Origin: a virus
IMG/VR virus record: IMGVR_UViG_3300046328_000890
Location: 1-28,567 of that record
Length of the DNA: 28,567 nt
Direction: 5' to 3' (one strand)
In this document: positions 6,776-25,500 of the stretch, piece by piece
Numbering within the stretch: position 1 is the stretch's first letter
Layout of the letters: each line of letters starts with the position of its first letter
Notes under the pieces: generated by a model
The model's input: only the letters and a program-made list of their open reading frames with translations
The model's database searches: none
Told to the model about the DNA's origin: nothing
Position numbers and translations under genes: made by a program

Positions 6776-8464
6776 ATGGCAATTTTAATGAGAGGAACAA
6801 GAGAAAATTTTAATCCTCAAATTCACACAGAAGCTAATTCATTAACTTCTCAAATGAATAAACACATGGAAGTTCGTAGAAAATCAATGGATTTATTTGC
6901 GCGCTACACCAAGTTTACTTCATTCATGTTTGCATCAGGTAGATCAAACGGTGGTTCAGCATCAGGAAAAGTGATGTCTGCTGCAAAAGACACATTGTTA
7001 GACAATGCGTACCGTATTGCTTATGATGGAGCATTATTGCTTCCCGCTTATGCAACTGGTGGAGCGCAAATTGGTTCTTGGTTTGATGCCGGAAATAGCC
7101 AACCAGATATGAGTGCTGTTGCTACAGTTACTTTTACTAATGGCCTTTCTGCTTTAACTGTTGTTACAGACGTTGCTGGAAGTATTGCTATTGAGCACGA
7201 TCCAGACAATGAAATTTACGGAGACAAATTTAATCCTAATGATTCCATCATTTTAGGACAAGGTTTAGGTTCTTTGTTTATTATTCAACAACACCCAAGA
7301 CGTTCTCTTGATGGTAGTCATTATGTTCTTGATGGAAAATTTGTTGGTACTGCTAACTTATTTAAAACAGAATATTTGGCAGCTGGAGAAGTAATGACCG
7401 AAGGTGGTAATTATTTCGGAGAAGGTTCTTTGAGAGGTTGGCAACGTTACAACCGTTCTAAATGGAGAATTAACTATTCTTCTATTCATAGAGCGTCTAT
7501 GACAATGACTGGTTCTGCAAAGAAACAAAAAGTTGCTTGGATTGTTAATCCAGAAAGCCAAGCTAAAATGTGGGAGTATGACGAGGTTTTAAAACAAGAC
7601 AAACTTTTCCATCAAGCAAATGAATTAGCATTAAGATTCTCACGTATTTCTATGGATGCTACAGATCATTCTTGGTTTGAAAACTATGGCCGTAATAAAC
7701 TTACGCTTACTGGTTTTAAAGCAGAATCAGGTTTAGCAGCTCCAATATTAGGTGATGGATGGATTCCACAAATTCAAGAGAATTTGACAATCGATTATGA
7801 TCCAAATGCGGGATTATCTTATTTGGCTTTAGAGTCATTATTGATGATTCTTGGACAACGTTCTCCTGTAGGTTCTGCAGGAAATCACTTTGTTGGTATT
7901 GGAGATACTATTGGTCATTCAGTATTGGATGCATCATTTAAAAAATTGATTGGTTTTGGAAATCATATTTCTAATTCTGCTTCTGGAACAATGTCATCTA
8001 ACATTGTTGATATTAAAACTGGAGAAGACAATAAAATTGGATTTGAAATTACAAATTATTACTACTTGGGTAATACTTTTACTTTCATTCAAGATGATTT
8101 GTTTAACAACCCTGGTTTGTTCAACACAAGTGGTGGTGTTACTGGAACAGGTAATATTTATGTATTAAACTGTTCTAATGTTGATGGAGTTTCTAACTTT
8201 GAGTTATTAGCTCGTTCAGGAAGAGAAATGAAACGTAAATATGAAAATGGTATGCATTCATTTAATGAAGCGCATGAAAACAGCGATTTAGCTTCTTCAG
8301 GCTTTGATGGTTGTTCAGTGCATACATTGAGTGAATTATTGCCAATTCTTTACGATGTAAGAAGTTGTGCTATTATCAAAGCGACTACTAAGTATAATGG
8401 CGGAGCTTTATCAGCACTTCCTATTGCAAGTGGAACGCACCAAGCAGCTAAGTTCTTATACTAG
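6776..8464 (+). CDS. Major capsid protein
   Basis: A 562-aa protein following the scaffold, the usual major capsid place. The N-terminal 70 residues are helical and charged (MAILMRGTRENF; HMEVRRKSMDLFARYTKF). The body is rich in Gly, Ser, Ala, Thr and Asn with alternating strands, as in a large shell protein, and the end is a beta-rich segment (IKATTKYNGGALSALP). Codon use is less AT-biased than in neighbours (more CGT, GGT, GCT and AAC), as expected for a highly expressed gene, and a strong terminator follows at once. I cannot demonstrate the HK97 fold by eye; a structure prediction would settle it. The 118-base leader holds a TAnnTTTG box and hairpins. Confidence 0.75.
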   Translation: MAILMRGTRENFNPQIHTEANSLTSQMNKHMEVRRKSMDLFARYTKFTSFMFASGRSNGGSASGKVMSAAKDTLLDNAYRIAYDGALLLPAYATGGAQIGSWFDAGNSQPDMSAVATVTFTNGLSALTVVTDVAGSIAIEHDPDNEIYGDKFNPNDSIILGQGLGSLFIIQQHPRRSLDGSHYVLDGKFVGTANLFKTEYLAAGEVMTEGGNYFGEGSLRGWQRYNRSKWRINYSSIHRASMTMTGSAKKQKVAWIVNPESQAKMWEYDEVLKQDKLFHQANELALRFSRISMDATDHSWFENYGRNKLTLTGFKAESGLAAPILGDGWIPQIQENLTIDYDPNAGLSYLALESLLMILGQRSPVGSAGNHFVGIGDTIGHSVLDASFKKLIGFGNHISNSASGTMSSNIVDIKTGEDNKIGFEITNYYYLGNTFTFIQDDLFNNPGLFNTSGGVTGTGNIYVLNCSNVDGVSNFELLARSGREMKRKYENGMHSFNEAHENSDLASSGFDGCSVHTLSELLPILYDVRSCAIIKATTKYNGGALSALPIASGTHQAAKFLY

Positions 8465-8544: not shown

Positions 8545-8814
8545 ATGTTACAACCTAAAAAAAAACCTGTTTATAAAGCCACAAAAGATAGTTCAAACTA
8601 TTTTTTAGAAAAAGCTATTCTTCGATATGAAGATAGTAAAAATAAAAAGCCTTCGGGAGAAGTTACTAATTACGAAGACAAAAAAGCATTAAATAAAATT
8701 AATGAAAATAGAGAACGCCAAAAGTTAAAAGGCAAACCAGGTTATGATGGAAATGGCTATCCTTTAAGAAAAATAAGCCCTCTCCAAAATGCCAAAAATT
8801 TTGTAAAAAAATAA
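8545..8814 (+). CDS. Small basic protein sharing both ends with the 9715 gene
   Basis: An 89-aa, Lys-rich, soluble protein of unknown function. It begins MLQPKK and ends QNAKNFVKK. The 78-aa protein at 9715-9951 also begins MLQPKK and ends KNAKAFVGKK, and both have ATKD near residue 12-20. The middle is charged and probably helical, with a Gly-rich turn (GKPGYDGNGYPL). It is the first gene after the capsid terminator and 15 bases ahead of the 292-aa gene. Possibilities are a DNA- or capsid-binding minor head protein or a packaged cargo protein; the shared ends suggest a common binding or targeting tag. No homology-based assignment is possible here. Confidence 0.7.
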   Translation: MLQPKKKPVYKATKDSSNYFLEKAILRYEDSKNKKPSGEVTNYEDKKALNKINENRERQKLKGKPGYDGNGYPLRKISPLQNAKNFVKK

Positions 8815-8829
8815 TTAAATAATAAAAAA

Positions 8830-9708
8830 ATGGAAACAATAGTAGAAAAAGGAACAGAAGAAAAAAGACAAGATTATTTAAAAGCGGTAGTGCTTGATCC
8901 TAAAAAAATGCAAGGTGTTTGGGAATTAAAAATTGAAGTTTCTAATACTCAAGGAACAAAAGCATTTGGAGGTCGAAGATTGACAACTTACATTCATCCA
9001 TTAACTGGGGTAAGAGTTCCATTAATTGACCTTGATGGACAAGAAACTCTTGGTTATATGATTGATAAACCAACAATGAGATTATATCCTGATACCAATC
9101 AAATGCATAGAAGAACTGTTGATTGGTTATTAGCACATCCACAAGTAGGTGTTGAAGGAATTCCTCTTACTGAAAAAATAAGTTCAAAAAAAGAATCTAA
9201 TCCAACCATTACACTTAAAAATGTTGATAGACAAGAATTATCAATGATTGATGATCAAGATACTATTGATGTTGTTATTGGAAAACTTTCTGATGACAAT
9301 CCAAAAACTGGTATTTCATTAGAGCGATTAAGATATTTATTAGCTCATTTTAATTTACCTTATTTTGATATTCGTTGGGTAAAAAACAAAACAACTGAAA
9401 GAAAATTACTTCGTCAAAAAATGAAAAATTTTGCAAGAGGTGTAAGCGCTTCAGGAGTTTTAAATGCAATTCTTGTTGACAATGTGCTTTCAGATATTGA
9501 CAATTTAAAATACAGCTATGAGTTTAAAGAAATGTTGCGTTTTGATATTGTTCGAGAAGCTAATGGTATTTATAAATTTAATAACGTTCCCATTGGAAGC
9601 AATGAGACAAGTGTTATTACATGGATGAAAAACAATTTAGATATTTATACCGAAATGGTGGCAATATTGTACCCTAAACTTAAAGCAGAAGGATTCACTT
9701 TTAAATAA
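8830..9708 (+). CDS. Unknown protein, probable head accessory component
   Basis: A 292-aa soluble protein without membrane segments. The first 120 residues are beta-rich, with a conserved-looking patch around THYIHP-like TTYIHPLTGVRVPLIDLDGQ. The middle (about 125-160) is charged and contains SMIDDQDTIDVVIGKLSDDN. The C-terminal half is helical, including RLRYLLAHFNLPYFDIRWVK and the basic stretch KTTERKLLRQKMKNFARG. It lies between the two small MLQPKK proteins, 15 bases after one and 6 before the other, so the three are likely one unit. Its place after the capsid gene suggests a head auxiliary or connector role, but I do not recognise the family. Confidence 0.75.
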   Translation: METIVEKGTEEKRQDYLKAVVLDPKKMQGVWELKIEVSNTQGTKAFGGRRLTTYIHPLTGVRVPLIDLDGQETLGYMIDKPTMRLYPDTNQMHRRTVDWLLAHPQVGVEGIPLTEKISSKKESNPTITLKNVDRQELSMIDDQDTIDVVIGKLSDDNPKTGISLERLRYLLAHFNLPYFDIRWVKNKTTERKLLRQKMKNFARGVSASGVLNAILVDNVLSDIDNLKYSYEFKEMLRFDIVREANGIYKFNNVPIGSNETSVITWMKNNLDIYTEMVAILYPKLKAEGFTFK

Positions 9709-9714
9709 AAAACT

Positions 9715-9951
9715 ATGTTACAGCCAAAAAAAGAAGCAGTTAAAAAAGAATTATTTGAAGCAACAAAAGATGTTTTTATAAATGATCCTAAAAATGCTAT
9801 AAAAAAGAAAGTAAAAGATTTTACTAAAGATGTTTCTAAAAAACGAAATAATGAATTAGTAGAATCTGTTAAAGATGTTTTTATAAATGATCCTTTAAAC
9901 AGTATAAAAAAAGGTTTAAAAAATGCTAAAGCTTTTGTTGGTAAAAAATAA
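9715..9951 (+). CDS. Small basic repeat protein, paired with the 8545 gene
   Basis: A 78-aa, very Lys-rich protein made of two copies of one unit: EATKDVFINDPKNAIKKKVK and ESVKDVFINDPLNSIKKGLK, 35 residues apart. Both are likely amphipathic helices. The ends MLQPKK and KNAKAFVGKK match those of the 89-aa protein at 8545. The net positive charge would suit contact with packaged DNA, with the acidic scaffold, or with a membrane surface. Spacing is 6 bases from the previous gene and 11 to the next, so it is co-expressed with the head accessory genes. The function is unknown. Confidence 0.7.
   Translation: MLQPKKEAVKKELFEATKDVFINDPKNAIKKKVKDFTKDVSKKRNNELVESVKDVFINDPLNSIKKGLKNAKAFVGKK
9766..9894 (+). 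repeat. Internal 24-bp direct repeat in the 78-aa gene
   Basis: Two identical 24-base copies lie at 9766-9789 and 9871-9894, both beginning AAAGATGTTTTTATAAATGA and encoding KDVFINDP in the same frame. The spacing of 105 bases (35 codons) points to a duplication within the gene, with weaker similarity continuing downstream (NAIKKK versus NSIKKG). Confidence 0.85.
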
Positions 9952-9962
9952 ATAAAAAAACT

Positions 9963-10610
9963 ATGTCATATACCGTAACGGAGGCGTACAATAGAATATT
10001 AGAGGAAGCAGATAAATTAGGTTCAGACTATTTTTCGCTTCCTCAAGTTCTAAAAGCTTTCAAAAAAGAAACATTAAGTTTTGTTGGCGCCAAAGCCAAA
10101 GAAATTGAATTAAATCAGGAAGTTACTGATGATATGAAATCTTTGCTTGTTCCGGTATTAATTCCATTTATTAACAATCCTGATAATGCAATGGAAAAAA
10201 TGGCAGTAGTTCCTAATAACTATCACACTAAAGTTTCATTAAATGTACTTTATGATGATGGTTTAAAAGCAAGGATTCCCACTATAGAAAGACATGGTGA
10301 ACATAATACCAATAGCGTTAGTCCTTATCGTAAACCTGAAAGATCATATCCTTTAATTAGACAATTTTCTAATTATTTTAATGTTAGTACAGGTATTCCG
10401 CTAAACGCTACAATACAACCATCAAAACTTATTTTGATTTATATTAAACAACCTACTTTTGGGCAAAACCCCAATGATGTAGTTGTTGATTTACCCGATT
10501 CCGTATGTGAATATCTTTTTGCAGAAACCGCTAATCACATGCGTTTAAATACCGGGGAACCGCAAGCTGCTCAAGACTTTCAATTTAACCAGACTTATAG
10601 AAATAAATAA
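9963..10610 (+). CDS. Head-tail connector / ring-like protein
   Basis: A 215-aa soluble protein that starts with helices (TVTEAYNRILEEADKLGSDY, then FSLPQVLKAFKKETLSFVGA) and continues with a beta domain (VVPNNYHTKVSLNVLYDDG; PSKLILIYIKQPTFG) and a terminal helix before QFNQTYRNK. This plan of an N-terminal 'YNRI...' helical part, a middle beta sandwich and an 'LPDSVCEYLFAETANHMRL' helix is one I know from structural proteins of Bacteroidota podoviruses, where they sit between head and tail genes. The next gene starts within its stop codon (TAATG), so translation is coupled. The role as an adaptor ring is inferred from pattern and position. Confidence 0.6.
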   Translation: MSYTVTEAYNRILEEADKLGSDYFSLPQVLKAFKKETLSFVGAKAKEIELNQEVTDDMKSLLVPVLIPFINNPDNAMEKMAVVPNNYHTKVSLNVLYDDGLKARIPTIERHGEHNTNSVSPYRKPERSYPLIRQFSNYFNVSTGIPLNATIQPSKLILIYIKQPTFGQNPNDVVVDLPDSVCEYLFAETANHMRLNTGEPQAAQDFQFNQTYRNK

Positions 10611-14048: not shown

Positions 14049-17000
14049 ATGAACGGAACAACAGATATTGCAACCGGATTAAGAGTACCTCTTCAAATAC
14101 CATTAGATAGTAAACAAATTATAACTTCAGAAGCTTTATTGTCAAATTTAGGAATTGGAGACAATCTCGCATATACCTATTACGATGGTCTTGTTGTTAC
14201 TTGTTTAGAAGAAAGAACAAATTATGAATGGAGACAAGCGCTTGTAGGCGAAATAGGCTTATTGCCTAATAATTTTGTATATCCAGAAAATTGGATTGTT
14301 TTTGGAAAAAATTATTCTTTACTTCCTTTTAACTTTTTTGATGTTACTCTTAAACATTTATTAGAATCTAAATTAGATAAAGGAGAATTTGAAGGTGATG
14401 CTTCAAATTTAGATGATAGAATTTTTGAATTAGAAAATATAAACATTCCTGATGCTGTATTAAAATATGGCGAAATTGTAATTACTAATGGAGTTGGCAA
14501 TATTCCTGCAGATACTTTTAATTGGAGATTAAACAAAATAGAATTCTTAAACACTGCTGCTTATAATTTTAATATTTTAGAAGCTACTGATGGTTTTTAC
14601 AGAACTGATTTAATAGTAGGAAACAACACAGGAAATTACGAAATTATTCAAGGAGAAGAAAATGAAATAGCTGCTGCAGAACCTGATGTTCCTGAAGGAA
14701 CAATAAAATTAACTTTAATTCCTGTTTTTGGCTCTGTTATTAGTCCTCCAGTCATTGTTCCTAATTATGACGATAAGTTTTTAAAACGATATAAGTTTAC
14801 CTATAAAACAATTCAACCTATTTTTAATATTGGTCCTGGAGAAGATGATTATAATGTAATTTATAATAATACTTTAGATTGTCAAATTAGAATTTGGGAA
14901 AATGGATATTATGGAAAATTTGTAAAAAACGGCGCTATTTACCCTTTTAAAAGTATGGGTGCTGGAAAAGTTACTGTAATGATTATGAATAATTTAGTTA
15001 CAGTAAATGCTCCTAATGGACTTGTTTTAAATAAAAATCAACAATGCTATTTAATTAAAGATGATTATAATGAATGGACTTTAATCAATCCAATAACAAA
15101 TAGAGCTGTAGTTAGAAATATAGAAATTGATATTTTGTTGCTTTCTGAAACAGTAAATTTTGAACAAAGTATTTGTAATTACATATTAAATTTACCAGAA
15201 GAAGAAAGAACGGTTTTTATAGACGGAAGTAAAGTAAATATTTTGGTAGGTCAAAAGCTTATATCTAATCCACTTTTTGTAATATTTCATTCTACTAATA
15301 ATGGCGCAATATTATGGTCAAGAGAAGGTGTTTATAATAATCCAAATATAGTATTGCATTATTCTACAGATAGTGGAATTTCATGGAACACAATCCTACA
15401 TGATTATTCTATAACATATAATGCTACTAATGATGGATATGTACAAATAGGTAATAACATATATAGCAATCAATTTTATATTTATGCTGAAAATTTAGAC
15501 ACGGGCGAATTGACTGGTATTTACAGAACAGCATTAGGAGTATTTATACCAAATCCTTACGAAACACCATTTAAAAATATTACTAATCCAGATATTTACG
15601 AAGTAATAAACAAAGGAACAGGTCTTATTGAGTCTATTACTCCTGATAATCTTTTGTTAATAGAAAAATACAAAGAAATAACTGCTCCTGGATTACAAGA
15701 AGTTTTAAATTCAGGAAGTAATGCTGAATTTGACAATGGAAATTCATACGTGAGGTTTCTAGGAGGAAATCCTAATGATAGATATTTTGAATTTTTTATT
15801 CAAAATGGAATCCCCTATCCAAATACAGAATCTAGTTATTTTTACACAGATAATAATAGTTTAGAATTTCAAAATACAGTATCTTCTTCGAGTGGAGTTA
15901 TTGGCGTATACGATGGTAGTATAAAATTGACACAAGCTAAATCGGGTAAAGAAACCTATGTAGATTTTGAAACCCCAGTATCTATTGGTCCATCTACATT
16001 AAAATTTCCAGCACCATTAGTTGGGGGATCATATATCTTGGCTACATTAAATGAAGCCTATCCAAACTTAAATTTTAAATATCCTTCTGGTTTTAATTTT
16101 AGACCTTTTAACATTATAGAACAAAATGGTGTATTTTCTGTAGATAAAAAACCGTTTGATTTAATTTCTGACAAAGTTAGCAAAATGCAAGCCTATTATG
16201 TCGATTATCAAAATGGTTCTAATTCAAACAATGGTTTAAGTGCAACAACTGCATTTAAGACAATAATTTACGCTATTAACACCGCAGGAGCAAGACTTAT
16301 ATATACACGTGGAGGTGATATTATTCAATCAGATGGATTTGGATTGATCAGTAGTACATCTGGCGTGGAAGACATTTTTATAATAAAAAAAGGAATAGAG
16401 CAAACTTATATTTTAAATAATATAATGAATCCAGTATTTACCTTAGATACAGATACTACATATAGTACTCCAATAGGTTCAAATATAGTGCCTAATGTTA
16501 TTGATTATAAATTTATTAATAGTTATGGATTTCCTTCTAATTTGTTAAAAGTAGCAACGTTAATAGACGTAAACGCAACGCCTAACAGTTATTTTATTGA
16601 TACAAATACTACAACTTTATATTTAAGACTAGAAGACGGAAGAGTTCCAGATGCTTCTGTTTTTGTTTTAAAAAGTTCATCTGATAATCGTATTCAAAAA
16701 GATGGAGGTTACGTATATAATGAAGGATTGACGTATTTAGGAGGTTTATACGCATACAGACATCGAGGTATTACAACAGCAACTGCGGTGTCTGTCGCTA
16801 ATTACTTTGCAGAAAATTGTAATTATTTGTATAGTGAACAAAATGGATTTGGAACTACCGATAATCAAGGAGTTACTTGGTTAAATAACTGTAAAGCATA
16901 TAAAAATAAATCAGACGGATTTAATTATTCACAAGGTAACATATATACTTTATCAAAAAATATTGAAGTAAATTGTCAAAGTTTTGATAATGGACTTAAT

Positions 17001-17936
17001 CAAACGATAACTTCGTTTCACAATGGAAGTTCTGCGCACGTAAAACATACTGTTATTCGTGTAGGAGGAAAATATTTTAGAAATACAGGCCCAAATGTAA
17101 TAGATGTGTTTGGTTCTCACTCTTTAAACGTAGGGGTAGAAGCATTTGAATCTTTAGGTTTTAATGATGTTGATAATAATCCAACGACAGCAGGAGTTAA
17201 TTTTGCAGATTATGGAGATTTTGGCTGCGGAACAATGGCAGGTGAGCCAGCTACAAAAATGTGGTTATATGCATGTAAATCAAAAGATAATAGATTATCA
17301 TTTCATAAACCATTATATCTTTCTGACGGAGTATCATTAGATATGTCTATTTTGTATGTTGATAATAGCTTAAAATTATCAAATATATTTGGAGATATTG
17401 TTTACGGAAGTTTTAACTCTTCAGAAATAATACCATACGTTTTTTCTAATTTATCAAGTTACACAACTCCATTTTATCAGCCTACTAAAATTAGAGATAC
17501 AGCAGTAAGTTCAACAGTTACAGGAATAGCTGTGGATACCGAAGTAAAAAGTTATTTTATACCCGCTAAAACTTTAAATGTAAACGATATTTTAGATGTT
17601 ATTGTAGAGGTAAATAAAACAGGAGCGGTAGGTACGGGAACGTATAAAGTTTGGAAAAATACAGCTAACAGTTTTGCTGGAGCAACGCAAATTGCAACAT
17701 TTACAACAGTGGCTGCAAATTTAATGACAAAGATGTCAAGACAGTTTACCTTAAGAAGTAATTTGTTGTTTGGAAATAGTTTCACAACTTCTTTAATCTC
17801 AGATATAATTTCTACGTCAACAGCGTTCAATAATACTATATTTGACACAGAAGTAGATAATTACATCTTTGTTTCAATAGCATTGGCAGGTGCAGCAGAT
17901 ACAGCATTTGTTTCATCAGTAAAGATTAATAATTAA
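14049..17936 (+). CDS. Tail spike / tail fibre with beta-helix domain
   Basis: A 1,295-aa receptor-binding candidate. The N-terminus (about 1-110; LRVPLQIPLDSKQIITSEAL, NYEWRQALVGEIGLLPNNFV) is an adaptor type I associate with Bacteroidota phage fibres. The middle holds beta domains, including a repeat-like GLQEVLNSGSNAEFDNG (from 548). From about 716, YYVDYQNGSNSNNGLSATTA matches the entry to right-handed parallel beta-helices of the DUF1565/pectate-lyase type, continuing to about 1160. The last 130 residues are Ala/Thr/Val-rich and look like a C-terminal trimerisation or capping domain. Tail spikes of this form often bind and sometimes cleave surface polysaccharide; no catalytic residues can be assigned by eye. 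Confidence 0.75.
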   Translation: MNGTTDIATGLRVPLQIPLDSKQIITSEALLSNLGIGDNLAYTYYDGLVVTCLEERTNYEWRQALVGEIGLLPNNFVYPENWIVFGKNYSLLPFNFFDVTLKHLLESKLDKGEFEGDASNLDDRIFELENINIPDAVLKYGEIVITNGVGNIPADTFNWRLNKIEFLNTAAYNFNILEATDGFYRTDLIVGNNTGNYEIIQGEENEIAAAEPDVPEGTIKLTLIPVFGSVISPPVIVPNYDDKFLKRYKFTYKTIQPIFNIGPGEDDYNVIYNNTLDCQIRIWENGYYGKFVKNGAIYPFKSMGAGKVTVMIMNNLVTVNAPNGLVLNKNQQCYLIKDDYNEWTLINPITNRAVVRNIEIDILLLSETVNFEQSICNYILNLPEEERTVFIDGSKVNILVGQKLISNPLFVIFHSTNNGAILWSREGVYNNPNIVLHYSTDSGISWNTILHDYSITYNATNDGYVQIGNNIYSNQFYIYAENLDTGELTGIYRTALGVFIPNPYETPFKNITNPDIYEVINKGTGLIESITPDNLLLIEKYKEITAPGLQEVLNSGSNAEFDNGNSYVRFLGGNPNDRYFEFFIQNGIPYPNTESSYFYTDNNSLEFQNTVSSSSGVIGVYDGSIKLTQAKSGKETYVDFETPVSIGPSTLKFPAPLVGGSYILATLNEAYPNLNFKYPSGFNFRPFNIIEQNGVFSVDKKPFDLISDKVSKMQAYYVDYQNGSNSNNGLSATTAFKTIIYAINTAGARLIYTRGGDIIQSDGFGLISSTSGVEDIFIIKKGIEQTYILNNIMNPVFTLDTDTTYSTPIGSNIVPNVIDYKFINSYGFPSNLLKVATLIDVNATPNSYFIDTNTTTLYLRLEDGRVPDASVFVLKSSSDNRIQKDGGYVYNEGLTYLGGLYAYRHRGITTATAVSVANYFAENCNYLYSEQNGFGTTDNQGVTWLNNCKAYKNKSDGFNYSQGNIYTLSKNIEVNCQSFDNGLNQTITSFHNGSSAHVKHTVIRVGGKYFRNTGPNVIDVFGSHSLNVGVEAFESLGFNDVDNNPTTAGVNFADYGDFGCGTMAGEPATKMWLYACKSKDNRLSFHKPLYLSDGVSLDMSILYVDNSLKLSNIFGDIVYGSFNSSEIIPYVFSNLSSYTTPFYQPTKIRDTAVSSTVTGIAVDTEVKSYFIPAKTLNVNDILDVIVEVNKTGAVGTGTYKVWKNTANSFAGATQIATFTTVAANLMTKMSRQFTLRSNLLFGNSFTTSLISDIISTSTAFNNTIFDTEVDNYIFVSIALAGAADTAFVSSVKINN

Positions 17937-19033: not shown

Positions 19034-19528
19034 ATGAATTACAATGGTGCAATTAAACAGCTCTACAAAGTAGAATGTTTTGATAAAGACGGAAATTTAA
19101 AATGGAAAGATGGGTTTGAAAATCTTGTGGTTACTACCGGAAGAAACCAATATCTTGATGCTACGCTAAAAACAGGTGTAACTTCTCCAACATGGTTTAT
19201 TGGATTAAAAGATGCTGTAGCTGCTATTGCTGCTGATACAATGGGATCACATGCTGGATGGGCGGAATTAACTCCATACTCACAAGGAACTCGACCAGCT
19301 TTTGTGTTAGGAACTATTGCTGCAGGAAGTGTTGATAATTCTGCTTCAAAAGCAGTATTTACAATAAATGGTACTGCAACTATTGGAGGTGCTTTTGTGG
19401 CCAACAACTCAACTAAAGCGGGTAGTACTGGAATATTATTAGGTGCTGGAGAATTTGCAGCGGCACGTTCTGTATTATCAGGAGATACTTTAAATGTTAC
19501 CGTTACTTGTTCAATCACTTCAAGTTAA
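19034..19528 (+). CDS. Widespread small phage structural protein
   Basis: A 164-aa, Gly/Ala/Thr-rich beta protein. Its pattern, an N-terminal FENLVVTTGRNQYLDATLK, then TWFIGLKD, DTMGSHAGWAELTPYS, KAVFTINGTATIGGAFVANN and a final SGDTLNVTVTC, is one I know from many tailed phages of Proteobacteria, usually unnamed or called a structural protein. Base and codon use are noticeably less AT-rich than in the genes on either side, which suggests acquisition from another phage. The ORF on the opposite strand over the same bases is a shadow. It is probably a virion decoration or fibre-associated component. The next gene starts 6 bases later and has the same composition. Confidence 0.7.
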   Translation: MNYNGAIKQLYKVECFDKDGNLKWKDGFENLVVTTGRNQYLDATLKTGVTSPTWFIGLKDAVAAIAADTMGSHAGWAELTPYSQGTRPAFVLGTIAAGSVDNSASKAVFTINGTATIGGAFVANNSTKAGSTGILLGAGEFAAARSVLSGDTLNVTVTCSITSS

Positions 19529-19534
19529 TATATT

Positions 19535-20359
19535 ATGGCAATTGAAACAGTTGATGGAATAGTAAAAGCTTTGGGGAACAATTCCAGCCGAATGGTGGTG
19601 GATAAGACTTCTATAGCCAATGCGGTAGCGGGTCAGTTTTTTTCTTTATGGAGAGCTACAGGATTCCCAACGCAAGGAGCAATTCCAACTACATCTGTGT
19701 TATGCACAAATGCGCTGACTGGAGCCGTAGGTTTTGCTAACCAAATAGCACCCGCTGATTCATATTTAGCATTTTTAGCTTTGACCAGTTCAAATAGCGG
19801 TACATCTATTGAGATTCACGACAGATTAATTCATAATGGAGGTTTAGTTCTGAATCTTGCGACATCTCAAGTAACTAATTTGCCGTTGAATTTAGCCACG
19901 TTAGGAGTAGCTGCAGATAGAATAGGTGATGCTAATTACAGCGACATCCAATGGTGGTTAGAAGTTTATACGGATGGTGGTGCCACTGCTTCTAATGCAA
20001 CTATAAATGTAACTTACAATGATGATACAACTGGTAATTTAGCAGTCGTGGCAGTTGGTGGAACTTTAAGAGCAGGAAGAATGATTCCTTTAATCACTGC
20101 GGTAGCGGGTAAATATATAAAAGGAATTAACTCTGTAATACTTTCTGTGACAACAGGGACCGCAGGTAACTTTGGATTTACGGCGACCAAAATTAGAGCA
20201 AATGCACCTTTGAATTTAGCCAATAAACAAGAAATATTTGACTGGGCAAATTTAGGCTTTCCCGAAATCGCCAATGACAGTTGTTTGTCATTTATTGCAA
20301 TGCCTACTACAACCAGTACAGGAACATTAAGGGGTTCTGGAAAAATAGCACATGGTTAA
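19535..20359 (+). CDS. Phage structural protein, partner of the 19034 gene
   Basis: A 274-aa beta-rich protein with many Ala, Thr, Gly and Asn and no Lys-rich tracts. Landmarks are GQFFSLWRATGFPTQGAIPT (about 33-52), AFLALTSSNSGTSIEIHDRL, NYSDIQWWLEVYTDGGATAS and the end SFIAMPTTTSTGTLRGSG. The same sort of protein occurs in diverse phages from memory, with unknown exact function but virion-linked neighbours. The composition matches the preceding gene and differs from the AT-rich fibre gene that overlaps its end by 8 bases. The two are best seen as an imported pair. No catalytic or membrane motif is present. Confidence 0.65.
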   Translation: MAIETVDGIVKALGNNSSRMVVDKTSIANAVAGQFFSLWRATGFPTQGAIPTTSVLCTNALTGAVGFANQIAPADSYLAFLALTSSNSGTSIEIHDRLIHNGGLVLNLATSQVTNLPLNLATLGVAADRIGDANYSDIQWWLEVYTDGGATASNATINVTYNDDTTGNLAVVAVGGTLRAGRMIPLITAVAGKYIKGINSVILSVTTGTAGNFGFTATKIRANAPLNLANKQEIFDWANLGFPEIANDSCLSFIAMPTTTSTGTLRGSGKIAHG

Positions 20360-21764
20360 GTATTTTAAAATAATAAAAAGAATAAGAGGGGGAAGTGCTT
20401 TATGGCATAATAATTCCCCCATTTCTATTATTTTAAATAATGAATTTTTTACAGTTTCTTCTGGAACAATTTATGAAGAAACAATTAGTCTTAATTCAAA
20501 TAATAATATTGTTCTTAATCAAGATTTAATTTTAAATGCAATTGTTGCTTTATCTCAAGACATTACTTTATCAAATCAAAACATAGCTGATTTAGTTGCT
20601 TCATTTATTTTGTCTAGTGATAATAATACTGCTCTTTTAAATGACGTTTTATTAAATGCAAACATTTCTTTGTCTTCAGATAATTTAAATACAATTGCCG
20701 GTGGTTCTGATTATTTTAATTCAATAGCATTATCTCAAGACGTTACTGTTTCTAATCAAATAACACTAATTTTTGATTTAGTAATTTCATTGCTTAAAAA
20801 TATTTCAATTACAAATTTAAATACATTAGATCAGGTAGTAAGTCTTAATTTAACTCAAGAAAATAATGTTTTAGTTTCTAATATTACTACAATAAATGCG
20901 ATTTTAAATTTAAGTTTAGATGCTGCCATAGCTAATCAATGTTTATTAATTATTGATGGGATTTTAATTTTAATTTCAGACAAACAATTTTCAAGTATTA
21001 ATACTGCAGTATTAAATGCTAATTTAAATATTGATATTGATAGCGCTATTGTTCCTTTAGCAAATTTAATAGCAAATGAAATTCTTGGATTAGCTATAAA
21101 TAATTTATTTAATGCTGAAAATTCTATAACAATAAACGAACAGTTAAGCTTACAAACTGTTTCTGAATTTTCAGACGATACTATGTCTGATTATTTAAAA
21201 ACAATAATTTACATAACAGACAATAATATAGAAATATCTTATGATTTATTATCTGAATTAATTACTCAATTAATGTCTTTGTCTCAAATAAATTTTGAAA
21301 CAACAAAAGATATTTTAGATGATATTGAATTACTAATAAATAATCAAATTATTTTTGATTTGTTTATGGAAGCTTATGATGAAATTGTAATTAGTTCTGA
21401 AGCTGGATTCTTAACTATTGGTGATGTTCTTGAAATAGCATCTTCAGTATTTAATTTAAATCTAACAACTTCAATGATTTTTGAAGCTTCAAAATTATTT
21501 GAAGAAAATATTACAATAAATGCAAATTCTTTTATTTCCTTTGTAGAAGGAATAATTGATGATTTAAATAATGAAATTATTATTATTTCTTCTAAAATAA
21601 CAAATAAGATTATTTTAAAATCAATGCTTTCTAAAATAATTTTTGAAAAATCAATAATGAAAGATGAAATTGCTTTAAAATCAATATTTTCTAAAATTGT
21701 TTTAGAAAAATCAATAATGACAAATGAAGTAAAAAATAATTCAAAAATTAAACGAAATGAGTAA
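20352..21764 (+). CDS. Fibre-like protein of 20-residue solenoid repeats
   Basis: A 470-aa protein. After a short head (residues 1-44, basic start MVKYFKIIKRIRGG) the chain divides into about 21 units of 20 residues. Units 1-13 (45-304) run without any insertion, for example VALSQDITLSNQNIADLVAS, IALSQDVTVSNQITLIFDLV and LNLSLDAAIANQCLLIIDGI. One extra residue precedes unit 14, unit 19 is four short, and units 20-21 are near copies. Consensus: hydrophobic at 1, Leu at 3, Ser at 4, Asp/Asn at 6, hydrophobic at 9, Leu/Ile near 15. Such periodicity predicts a solenoid rod. The start overlaps the preceding gene by 8 bases and the end overlaps the next by 8. It is probably a tail or head fibre shaft; I know no matching family. 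Confidence 0.75.
   Translation: MVKYFKIIKRIRGGSALWHNNSPISIILNNEFFTVSSGTIYEETISLNSNNNIVLNQDLILNAIVALSQDITLSNQNIADLVASFILSSDNNTALLNDVLLNANISLSSDNLNTIAGGSDYFNSIALSQDVTVSNQITLIFDLVISLLKNISITNLNTLDQVVSLNLTQENNVLVSNITTINAILNLSLDAAIANQCLLIIDGILILISDKQFSSINTAVLNANLNIDIDSAIVPLANLIANEILGLAINNLFNAENSITINEQLSLQTVSEFSDDTMSDYLKTIIYITDNNIEISYDLLSELITQLMSLSQINFETTKDILDDIELLINNQIIFDLFMEAYDEIVISSEAGFLTIGDVLEIASSVFNLNLTTSMIFEASKLFEENITINANSFISFVEGIIDDLNNEIIIISSKITNKIILKSMLSKIIFEKSIMKDEIALKSIFSKIVLEKSIMTNEVKNNSKIKRNE
20484..21734 (+). repeat. Array of about 21 degenerate 20-codon repeats
   Basis: The coding region for residues 45-461 of the 470-aa protein is a 60-base-period repeat at protein level. DNA identity between distant units is low, so the array is old, except for the last two. 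Register changes occur only at residue 305 (one extra codon) and within unit 19 (16 codons). Confidence 0.75.
21615..21734 (+). repeat. Recent 60-bp tandem duplication at the array end
   Basis: Bases 21615-21674 and 21675-21734 align without gaps with 48 of 60 matches, and 40 of the first 45. They encode LKSMLSKIIFEKSIMKDEIA and LKSIFSKIVLEKSIMTNEVK. Unlike the older units these are Lys-rich, so the distal end of the rod differs chemically. Confidence 0.85.
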
Positions 21765-22050
21765 AATTTATAAAGGTCAAACTAAATTGACATTTAATAT
21801 AGAAACAGAAACTGATTTAACTGGAGTGATTAGTGTAGAACTAAAATACAAAAATCCTGCTGGAATATTAGGTTCATTTCCTGCTACTATTTTAGATATT
21901 ACTAAAGGAATTATAAATTTTACTTTTTCTAATTCAACTCAAACAACACCTTCTGGTTCTTGGACTTATTGGGTAAAAGCTACATATTCATCAGGACAAG
22001 TAATATTTGGTGAACCTTACATATTGACAATACACGAAGAAGGATCTTAA
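21757..22050 (+). CDS. BppU/Ig-like phage fibre or baseplate protein
   Basis: A 97-aa single beta domain. The pattern KGQTKLTFNIETETDLTG, ISVELKYKNPAG, ITKGIINFTF and SGSWTYWVKATYSSGQVIFG follows the plan of the N-terminal domain of baseplate upper proteins (BppU) and related Ig-like phage proteins, where it docks a fibre to the tail. Its ATG lies inside the last codons of the solenoid gene (8-base overlap), so the two are translated together and may interact. There is no signal peptide or membrane segment. The function is inferred from the fold pattern and the neighbour. Confidence 0.6.
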   Translation: MSKIYKGQTKLTFNIETETDLTGVISVELKYKNPAGILGSFPATILDITKGIINFTFSNSTQTTPSGSWTYWVKATYSSGQVIFGEPYILTIHEEGS

Positions 22051-22565: not shown

Positions 22566-25500
22566 ATGGCAAAAGATTCTGTAAACAGAAGTAATGACCT
22601 TAATGGAGTTGAACTTCATCAATTTTCAAAAGGTTGGAGTGTTGATTTAGATAACAATTCTGAAAGATCAGAAGGATATGCCGATGCTTGGAATGGAAGA
22701 CTTTATTCCCATGAAGGAACTTTAGCTTTTACTTCTTTAAAAGGTTCTAAATTTGTTTATAATAATAATAATATTAAAAAATATAATGGATATTATTCTT
22801 TTGCTGATGAATTAATTGTTTTTGCAAAAGGAGATTTGCCTTTAAGTAACACAGAAACAGAAGAGCAAACTATTATTGAAATTGTTGTAAATGATTTTAA
22901 TGTAAATTCAGCTACTGATACAATTAATGGAATATTATTTTCAAGTAATTATATTGAAAATAATATTGTCATTGAAGTTCCTGTAGAACCAATAGATGAA
23001 GATGATTTTAAACAAAATTTAACAGAAGTTGAAGATATTAATACTATTGATGTAACTTTTGGAGGCTTGTTTAAAACGCTTACTTACATGCCTAATAATC
23101 CAATAAATTGCTCTATAAATAATGAAGTTCCTATTAACAACGAGCCTATAGGAGAAATGAATGATATTATCATTTCTTTTAAATTTAATGCTTTAGGTTT
23201 ACTTGTTTCTAAAGTATTATACAATGGCTATTTAAACATTCCATTTAATGCTGTAATAACAACTGAAGGTGTTGATGAAAACACTAATTACAAAAGAGTA
23301 TATTTTAGTGATTATTATAATAGCACAAGAGTTTTTAATATTAAAGATAAAGATCTTTATAAAAGAAGACCTGAAGAATTTGATATTAAAACAAAAGGAG
23401 TTTTATTAAGCCCGCGCATAACATCTATAAAAGAAAACGGTCAGTTAAAAGCAATGACTGTTTTTTATGTAATGAAATTGTTTACTGAAAATGGACAAGT
23501 TTCCGATTTTTCTCCTTTATCAAAAGGAGTTAAAATAGGCAAAGGAGTAGGCGCTGAAATAATTGGTGAAGACATAAGTGAAATAACAAATAAATCAGTT
23601 GTTATTGATTGTTATATTCCAGACTATAAAAACTTTAAAGAAGTACAATTAGTAGCTATTGAATTTGAAGCAAAAGATGTACCTACTACTATTCGTTTAG
23701 TAGGTACAAAAGTTGTAAATGCTATTGTTTCTTTTGAGCACTTTGGTTCAGAATCAGAATTTAAAGAAAATATTACTATTGCTGATTTATTTGCTAATTC
23801 TATTAGTTGGAAATACAATTCTGATTTTACAACTAAAAACAATAAAATGCTTGTTTCGGGATTGCGTAATGATCCGTTGTTTTTAAATTCAAAAAATGTA
23901 GCATTAGATTTTTCTTTATCAAGCTTTGACGAGAATGGAAATACACACACTTCATTATTAAATCCAGACCCCTTAGCTTATAATCTAATCAACAATAATC
24001 TAACCGAAGCATTCTTTTATGTACAAAGAAAATTGTATCGTAAAATCGAAGTATTTGGCAATTTTAAAATAAAATTACAAAACACTTTAAATGCTGATGA
24101 TTTTTATGAATTTATTCAAACAGAAGTTTCTTATGAATATGTTGATCATACTAAATTAATTGGAGATTTTTTATTAGTAGTACAATTAGATCCTAATTTT
24201 TTAGTTAAATTTCCTAATTTACATATTAAAATTACGGGAGGTAAAATATTGTTTGAGCCAATAGATCCTTTAGTAATTACAGATTTTCATAATTATAATT
24301 TAGTGTTTTCAACATCACAAGTAATTATTGATTTAGATAATGATATTGAAAACAAAGTAATTGCATGGCCAACAACAAACCAAGCTAAAGAAGCTGCTTT
24401 AGTATATGGCGGAGTTTCTAATGGTTGGTTTAGTGGTAATGGTGTTAAAGTCACTATGCATAGCGTAAAAGAAAATGTTTTAAGTAAAAATACACAATGG
24501 ATGTCTGGAACAGATTTACCTTTAAAAATCAAAGAACCAGTTCAGAAAAAATGTGTAATGAAAGGAGAAATATATCGTTTAGGAATTCAGTGGTATAAAA
24601 ATGGAAATCGTTTGTTCTCAACTATTCTTGGAGATTTAAAAATACCAGATATTGGTCAAAAAAAAAGAGAATTAGATGTTAATGGTAATATTATTATATC
24701 TTCAGATACTTATAAAAATTGGAGTGTTGATGGAAATGAAATGTATGCTGAAAAAATAGAATTGCAATTTGATATTCGTTTAAATTGTGAATTGTCAAAA
24801 GAAATTGATGCTTATCAAATTGTTTACGTAGAACGTACCGAAAATAATAGAACTATTTTAGCGCAAGGTATTTCTGCCCCGTTAGAAAGAATGGCCGACT
24901 TTGGAGTTTCTGGACAAGGAGATCTTCCTGATTTTGAAGAAACAATAGTAAAAAAATGGTCATTACCAAGTAATGGAGGACCAGTATATGATTATCAAGG
25001 ATTATTAAATTTTGATACAGATCCTAATTTTGATTATAATGGTCCAAGTGATGGCAATGCAATTAAAGCAATAACTACTAATAGAAAATCTTTTTATTTT
25101 GATAGTCCAGATTTAGTATATGATAAAATTTCTTCCAATTTTGTTGCATCATGTATTTTAGAATATATTGAATCAATAGCAACCGATCATGATAGGCACA
25201 ATATAATGGGGGGTTATAATGCTTTTACTTGTGGAAATGACCTCTATCATGGCGGCGATGAAAATGATTCTGGTAATCCAGGATGTAAAGCTTATTCAAT
25301 TACTGGTGCAGAAAGTTCTAGTGGACCATACAATTTTGAAGGCTCAAAATTTTCACAAAAAATACCTTCAAATTTGTTAGCTGGAAATGAAAAAACAAGA
25401 CCTTTTTGGGTAAACGCGAGTGTGTTTGCTAATAGATTAAAAACAAGAACTTATACAGCATTTCAAAATACATTAAGTTCAGAATACAAATATCTTATTA

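What the first reader, a model, noticed from the sequence alone, without database searches (positions are those of the whole stretch)
20484..21734. Fibre protein made almost wholly of a 20-residue solenoid repeat
Residues 45-461 of the 470-aa protein fall into about 21 units of 20 residues, the first 13 with no insertion or deletion. The pattern (hydrophobic 1, Leu 3, Ser 4, Asp/Asn 6, hydrophobic 9, Leu/Ile 15) is clear by eye, and I do not know a named family with this motif. The strict register over 260 residues suggests a rigid rod about one turn per 20 residues. It sits next to a BppU-like docking protein, which fits a fibre shaft. Inference: a new class of phage fibre solenoid.
Basis: partly seen in the sequence, partly recalled or inferred. 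Interest (0 to 1): 0.65.

Follow-up and report, generated by a model that had tools for sequence, protein, structure and literature searches.

The report
Phage fibre with swappable repeat rod
A virus of bacteria carries a fibre protein whose middle is a strictly paced 20-residue repeat; the same gene position in dozens of unrelated viruses keeps the ends of the protein but swaps in a completely different repeat of nearly the same length, which suggests an interchangeable rod between two fixed attachment points.

Summary
The repeat is real, but shorter than claimed. Residues 45-304 are 13 gapless 20-residue units (z about 6 at lags 20, 40 and 60; cross-validated, 0 of 2000 shuffles). Residues 305-404 lose the register. 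Residues 405-464 are a different, 10-residue repeat. No Pfam, PHROG, NCBIfam or PDB sequence match exists. The gene belongs to a mobile cassette. In 80 viral and 21 prokaryotic-genome loci, the conserved upstream 274-aa protein is nearly always followed by a protein with the same ~35-residue N-terminal anchor (RGG..W...EFF) and a repeat array. 47 of 54 distinct long versions are periodic, mostly at 20-23 residues, with unrelated unit sequences. In the closest relative (274-aa protein 85% identical) the array is 22-residue and no more similar than shuffled sequence. Many arrays end in a 9-11-residue repeat tail beside a ~100-aa adaptor gene; some adaptors match the podophage GP4 fiber-tail adaptor (Gp77). 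In two Gordonia phages the order is reversed, with the tail still facing the adaptor. Best reading: a spacer rod of a neck or collar fibre, docked by its tail. The solenoid fold is unproven: AlphaFold2 failed on the window protein (pLDDT 33) and gave a moderate-confidence beta-solenoid for the sister protein.

The parts
20352..21764 (+). 470-aa repeat fibre protein (whole gene)
   Evidence: ORF; no Pfam/PHROG/NCBIfam/PDB sequence match
20352..20465 (+). N-terminal anchor, residues 1-38 (IRGGSALW...NNEFF), shared with the downstream gene of the 274-aa protein in most related loci
   Evidence: 65 distinct anchors aligned; alignment A9
20484..21263 (+). array of 13 gapless 20-residue units, residues 45-304
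   Evidence: autocorrelation; cross-validated register
21264..21563 (+). residues 305-404, degenerate: not in register with the array
21564..21743 (+). C-terminal 10-residue repeat tail (SxITNxIxxK type), residues 405-464; includes a 60-bp duplication at 21614-21728
21757..22050 (+). 97-aa adaptor-like protein (GKIY class), 8-nt overlap with the fibre gene
   Evidence: same class follows the repeat protein in L010, L011, L017, L053 and L065; PF10651 E 0.031 and NF041539 E 0.0025, both below cut-off
19535..20359 (+). 274-aa conserved partner protein, 8-nt overlap with the fibre gene
   Evidence: 52-68% identity across unrelated phages, A2; 80 viral and 21 genome loci
19034..19528 (+). 164-aa structural protein of the cassette (phrog_8123; weak GP4 gp80 fibre I similarity)
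   Evidence: phrog_8123 E 8e-28; PF23140 E 0.037, below cut-off; PDB 26la_U E 9e-14

Best explanation
The protein is the rod (spacer) segment of a virion fibre belonging to a horizontally exchanged cassette: [164-aa protein]-[274-aa protein]-[repeat protein]-[~100-aa adaptor]. Its N-terminal anchor associates with the 274-aa partner, its 20-residue array forms an elongated, probably beta-rich rod, and its C-terminal 10-residue repeat tail docks on the adaptor, which by analogy with podophage GP4 Gp77 belongs to a collar around the neck or upper tail. Unit sequence is nearly free to change while the pitch (20-23 residues) is kept, so a phage can exchange the rod without changing either attachment. 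Shown here: the periodicity, the conserved anchor, the cassette, the array swap between near relatives, the tail/adaptor association. Inferred: docking, rod shape, fold, oligomer state and position in the virion.
For: Period and register. Cassette and widespread anchor. Periods in 47 of 54 long downstream proteins, mostly 20-23. Array swap: against L017 the holin is 96%, endolysin 88%, 274-aa protein 85%, anchor 58%, tail 39%, adaptor 43% identical, but the array 18% (shuffled mean 20%). Adaptor genes follow long arrays (20 of 51) rather than short proteins (2 of 41, P 1.3e-4), and in both exceptions (L006, L048) an array-like ORF lies in between. Gp77-class adaptors: PF23148 E to 1.4e-26, PDB 8jou_D E 1e-11. 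In cultured phages the 9-residue tail lies at the end of the array protein nearest the adaptor gene (DSL-LC06, Mwe-JY26, Mae-JY04, and Mae-JY22 with two genes between), and in Gordonia phages Moosehead and GodonK both gene order and protein order are reversed. All six GKIY-class loci, and no other of 51, carry the SxITN-type tail. Neck context elsewhere: lambda-family portal after L005/L012, gp6-like connector after L020/L039. DEV paper PMC10925440: fibre N-terminal domains form a 15-mer collar, as in GP4.
Against: The window's own adaptor class shows no sequence homology to Gp77 and PF23148 finds nothing in the window. The Gp77 link is therefore by size, gene position and tail architecture only. 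31 of 51 long-array loci have no detected adaptor of the five classes, and 10 of those 31 still have a periodic tail (P only 0.04 for tail against adaptor; L030 has an adaptor upstream of the module). A loose motif test across all ORFs was not significant (P 0.057). In prophiGD54-2 and Shagrat the tail is at the C-terminus although the adaptor is upstream, so the polarity rule is not universal. Tail classes were defined after seeing the sequences. No usable structure for the window protein.
Confidence: 0.55

Rival explanations
1. Opposite polarity: the N-terminal anchor docks on the virion through the 274-aa protein, and the array plus C-terminal tail is the distal, host-contacting part; the small adaptor-like protein caps or chaperones the tip.
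For: Phage fibres usually dock by their N-terminus (general knowledge). The anchor and the 274-aa partner are the conserved parts, as expected of docking elements, while the variable array would then be the exposed part. In two Gordonia phages a different domain lies C-terminal of the array, like a tip.
Against: The adaptor classes include Gp77, a virion adaptor in the solved GP4 structure. In the Gordonia phages the tail repeat and adaptor are at the end opposite the tip-like domain.
Confidence: 0.27
2. The array is a largely unstructured or loosely ordered low-complexity linker whose period reflects slow duplication history rather than a folded rod.
For: AF2 confidence for the window protein is very low. 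The composition is dominated by I, L, N, S in an AT-rich gene. AF2 over-predicts beta-solenoids for repeats (PMC11795689).
Against: Gapless register over 13 units that are only 20% identical implies selection on the pitch. Hydrophobicity alternates with periods 2.0 and 6.7. Unrelated unit sequences share unit lengths of 20-23 residues. The sister model is regular beta at pLDDT 72-89.
Confidence: 0.12
3. Ordinary chance or compositional repeat with no family meaning.
For: Hydrophobic and Asn/Ser-rich composition can mimic periodicity.
Against: Shuffle and cross-validation tests; 47 of 54 proteins at the same gene position are periodic.
Confidence: 0.02

Closest known systems
Podophage GP4 fibre system (Gp77 fiber-tail adaptor PF23148 / PDB 8JOU; Gp80 fibre I PF23140)
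   Same: Adaptors downstream of repeat proteins in L025, L037, L072, L083 match PF23148, and their profile matches 8jou_D. The 164-aa cassette protein has a weak PF23140 match.
   Different: The window's own adaptor does not match Gp77. No 20-residue array is known to me in GP4; its paper (J Mol Biol 2023) was not available here.
LSH1 gp34-gp36 'extra structural module' (PMC13243795)
   Same: A small structural module near the lysis genes with a protein related to a GP4 fibril chain (8JOU_g), an Ig-like small protein, and a large protein with poorly predicted, possibly repetitive parts.
   Different: No anchor-plus-20-residue array described there; sequence relation to this cassette not tested.
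Curli CsgA and right-handed beta-helices (structural resemblance of the sister model only)
   Same: AF2 model of L017: 22 residues per unit, long plus short strand; VIA Z 22.9 (rmsd 9.6) to 8c50 CsgA, Z 15-20 to beta-helices.
   Different: No Foldseek PDB match below E 1; no curlin or other Pfam hit to the window protein; model partial and from a biased method.
BppU N-terminal domain (lactococcal phage baseplate)
   Same: Weak similarity of the 97-aa neighbour, PF10651 E 0.031.
   Different: Below the curated cut-off (14.4 against 23.1 bits).

Membership tests
GP4-type collar fibre system | Gp77 (PF23148) adaptor encoded beside the fibre | tested here: not met
   No PF23148 match in the window; profile comparison of the GKIY and Gp77 classes E 0.45, probability 0.1%. 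Met in related loci L025, L037, L072, L083.
GP4-type collar fibre system | Gp80-like fibre I protein in the cassette | tested here: inconclusive
   PF23140 E 0.037, 14.8 bits against cut-off 27; PDB 26la_U 'Structural protein' E 9e-14, phage not identified.
GP4-type collar fibre system | 15-fold adaptor ring around the neck with trimeric fibres | not testable with these tools
   Needs cryo-EM; the 15-mer collar in DEV, like GP4, is stated in PMC10925440.
BppU-like docking protein | Match to PF10651 above cut-off in the 97-aa neighbour | tested here: not met
   14.4 bits against 23.1.
Curli-type beta-solenoid (CsgA) | Curlin repeat sequence motif | tested here: not met
   No Pfam family at E <= 1 for the window protein.
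beta-solenoid / beta-helix fibres | Confident predicted or solved solenoid fold of the array | tested here: inconclusive
   Window protein pLDDT 33; sister L017 pLDDT about 72-89 over residues 50-220 with regular strands, below 50 after 265; method bias reported in PMC11795689.
Triple beta-spiral shaft (adenovirus/reovirus type) | 15-residue repeat | tested here: not met
   Lags 20, 40 and 60 dominate residues 45-304 and lag 15 is not among the eight highest; the 15-residue definition is from general knowledge.
crAss-like phage (the virus that carries the gene) | Crassvirus major capsid protein PF23898 above cut-off | tested here: met
   29.7 bits against cut-off 27, E 2.9e-7 for window 6776-8464.

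The most novel reading that the evidence does not exclude
Phages of many groups share an 'interchangeable rod' fibre system: two fixed couplings (anchor to the 274-aa partner, 9-11-residue docking tail to a collar adaptor) joined by a repeat rod whose pitch is conserved but whose sequence is almost unconstrained, a fold defined by pitch rather than by sequence family.
Probability: 0.35. Interest if true: 0.78.

Novelty: new variant of a known kind. Interest (0 to 1): 0.58.

Why it matters
The cassette gives a name and a function hypothesis to a large set of 'hypothetical' phage proteins that family databases miss because their repeats do not align with each other. If the docking-tail reading is right, fibre rods could be recognised and matched to their adaptors from sequence alone. 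It also offers a natural experiment on how little sequence is needed to define a repeat fold: the same gene slot holds dozens of unrelated arrays of 20-23 residues per unit.

Tried and rejected
Direct homology of the window protein: none in phages, none in viral contigs, and only L011 plus a short anchor match when searched with an alignment. PDB sequence searches with the window protein, L006 and L030 arrays, the 274-aa profile, the GKIY adaptor profile and the 9-residue tail profile found nothing useful. Homology of the GKIY adaptor to Gp77 was tested and not found. AF2 of the window protein failed. Foldseek against PDB gave no match below E 1; the one BFVD match below 1e-3 (S-CAM3 protein, E 5.8e-4, TM 0.26) is too weak to use. 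A loose 9-residue motif scan over all ORFs was drowned by shadow frames and not significant. The first version of the adaptor count missed long stop-to-stop ORFs (16 of 51) and was redone with the end coordinate (20 of 51). Literature searches for a description of the repeat found none. Ralstonia phage GP4's genome record was not found under the accession tried, and its paper is not held.

Full report
What is there. The gene at 20352-21764 (+) encodes 470 residues. The window is a 28,567-base virus record, a linear fragment by IMG/VR's class. Its capsid protein passes the Crassvirus capsid cut-off, and terminase, portal, holin and endolysin genes are recognisable, so the virus is crAss-like. 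The fibre gene follows a holin, an endolysin-like protein, a 164-aa protein and a 274-aa protein, and precedes a 97-aa protein. It overlaps both immediate neighbours by 8 nt; the same 8-nt overlap with the 274-aa gene is the commonest spacing in the related loci (33 entries).

Is the repeat real. Yes, with a correction. Autocorrelation of residues 45-461 peaks at lags 20, 40 and 60 (z 6.3, 6.1, 5.8; 1000 shuffles never exceeded 4.4 at any lag) and hydrophobicity peaks at periods 2.0 and 6.7, which is beta-like and not helical. A profile trained on residues 45-164 finds 165-304 in the same register, and the reverse, with 0 of 2000 shuffles as good. The register is weaker in 245-304 and lost in 305-404, and 405-464 is a different repeat of about 10 residues. 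So there are 13 gapless units, not 21. Units share 20% identity on average, and the array DNA has no 60-base tandem repeat, whereas the tail has a recent 60-bp duplication.

No known family. Pfam, PHROGs, NCBIfam and the PDB sequences gave nothing for the window protein, and no close relative was found in phage records or viral contigs. The gene could be placed only through its neighbour.

The cassette. Relatives of the 274-aa protein were found in viral contigs, in cultured Rhodobacter and Microcystis phages and in 21 prokaryotic genome contigs, mainly cyanobacterial and proteobacterial. In nearly all, the next gene begins with a ~35-residue anchor, RGG-x-x-x-W ... EFF; 65 distinct anchors align. 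What follows varies. Short versions carry about three 14-residue units (KVWTGSAWV type; Rhodobacter phages, cyanobacterial genomes). Long versions carry arrays: 47 of 54 distinct proteins of 140 aa or more are periodic beyond the 99% shuffle limit, with best periods 20 (15), 22 (15), 21 (7), 23 (3), 24 (1), 10 (4), 14 (1), 12 (1). Some of the 54 are probably mis-framed ORFs (L040, L051, L110), so the fraction is approximate. Unit sequences are unrelated between phages.

Swap between near relatives. L017 shares the holin (96%), endolysin (88%) and 274-aa protein (85%) with the window, the anchor at 58%, the tail at 39% and the adaptor at 43%, yet its array has 22-residue units and is 18% identical, no more than shuffled sequence (mean 20%). 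L011 is the only true array orthologue found (33%, BLASTP E 4e-35); its contig shows no match to the crAss capsid family or the window's terminase (the capsid search had no positive control and the contig may be partial), and its 164-aa protein is 84% identical, so the module appears to move between phages. Two viruses with 80-82% identical terminase (L003, L004) lack the 274-aa protein in the contigs held, so the cassette appears exchangeable.

The other end. Many long proteins end in a second repeat of 9-11 residues. A ~100-aa protein of one of five sequence classes follows the repeat gene in 20 of 51 long loci and 2 of 41 short ones (P 1.3e-4; class models were built from some of these loci, so presence in seeds is by construction). 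In the two exceptions an array-like ORF lies between. One class is the GP4 fiber-tail adaptor family, PF23148, E down to 1.4e-26, and its profile finds the GP4 chain 8jou_D at E 1e-11. The window belongs to another class (GKIY), for which homology to Gp77 was tested and not found. All six GKIY loci have an SxITN-type tail and none of the other 45 does (motif chosen after inspection). Periodic tails are commoner with a detected adaptor (13 of 20 against 10 of 31, P 0.04), a weak association; one counter-example, L030, has an adaptor upstream.

Support from cultured phages. Gp77-type adaptors occur in 139 phage records. In DSL-LC06, Mwe-JY26, Mae-JY04 and Mae-JY22 a gene upstream has an array of 20-23 residues followed by a 9-residue tail with Arg in register; in Mae-JY22 two small genes intervene. 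In Gordonia phages Moosehead and GodonK the adaptor gene comes first and the next protein starts with Arg-rich repeats, followed by a 22-residue array, with a different C-terminal domain beyond it. In these six the tail repeat faces the adaptor gene. In prophiGD54-2 and Shagrat it does not. I sampled nine such records plus Faith1, not all 139.

Fold. AlphaFold2 on the window protein with its single orthologue gave pLDDT 33. On L017 with three relatives it gave regular long-strand/short-strand units at pLDDT about 72-89 for residues 50-220 and below 50 after 265. VIA-align places this among beta-helices and CsgA; Foldseek finds no PDB match below E 1. [quoted passage not shown] L017 units are 28% identical, which makes the warning less direct but does not remove it. 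The fold is therefore a hypothesis.

Mechanism. The explanation that accounts for most observations is a rod between two couplings: anchor to the 274-aa partner, tail repeat to a collar adaptor. The collar analogy rests on DEV, where 15 fibre domains are modelled as a ring around the tail that joins five trimers, compared by its authors with GP4 (PMC10925440), and on loci where the module precedes a lambda-type portal or gp6-like connector. No step of docking was tested. The main rival is the opposite polarity.

Verdict. A real and unusual repeat, part of a widespread cassette that is undescribed as far as the searches here show. New variant of a known kind, phage fibres with repeat shafts. 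The claim of a new solenoid class is open.

Noticed in passing
L014:8830-9078, L016:8824-9069 and cyanobacterial loci among L094-L109: Short version of the same gene: anchor plus about three 14-residue KVWTGSAWV units, no adaptor detected.
   Followed up: partly
L006:6832-7062 and 8618-10333; L048: Anchor and array are split onto separate ORFs; the L006 array ORF is followed by a Gp77-type adaptor.
   Followed up: partly
L122:5271-6804 (Gordonia phage GodonK gp95/gp96): The 22-residue array continues across two overlapping ORFs in different frames: possible frameshift, programmed or annotation artefact.
   Followed up: no
L012:7683-8246: Small adaptor-like protein carries a C-terminal extension that resembles lambda gpW by eye, directly before a lambda-family portal.
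   Followed up: no
L005:5929-6837: The 274-aa homologue carries an N-terminal stretch that looks like a signal peptide.
   Followed up: no
hit H26, Methanosarcina virus MetMV 23315-23761: The 164-aa cassette protein has a 36% identical relative in a virus of an archaeon.
   Followed up: no
L066, gene downstream of the 274-aa homologue (768 aa): Very strong 12-residue period, unlike the 20-23 rule.
   Followed up: no
window 14049-17936: 1295-aa protein upstream of the lysis genes without a confident family; possible second fibre or spike.
   Followed up: no
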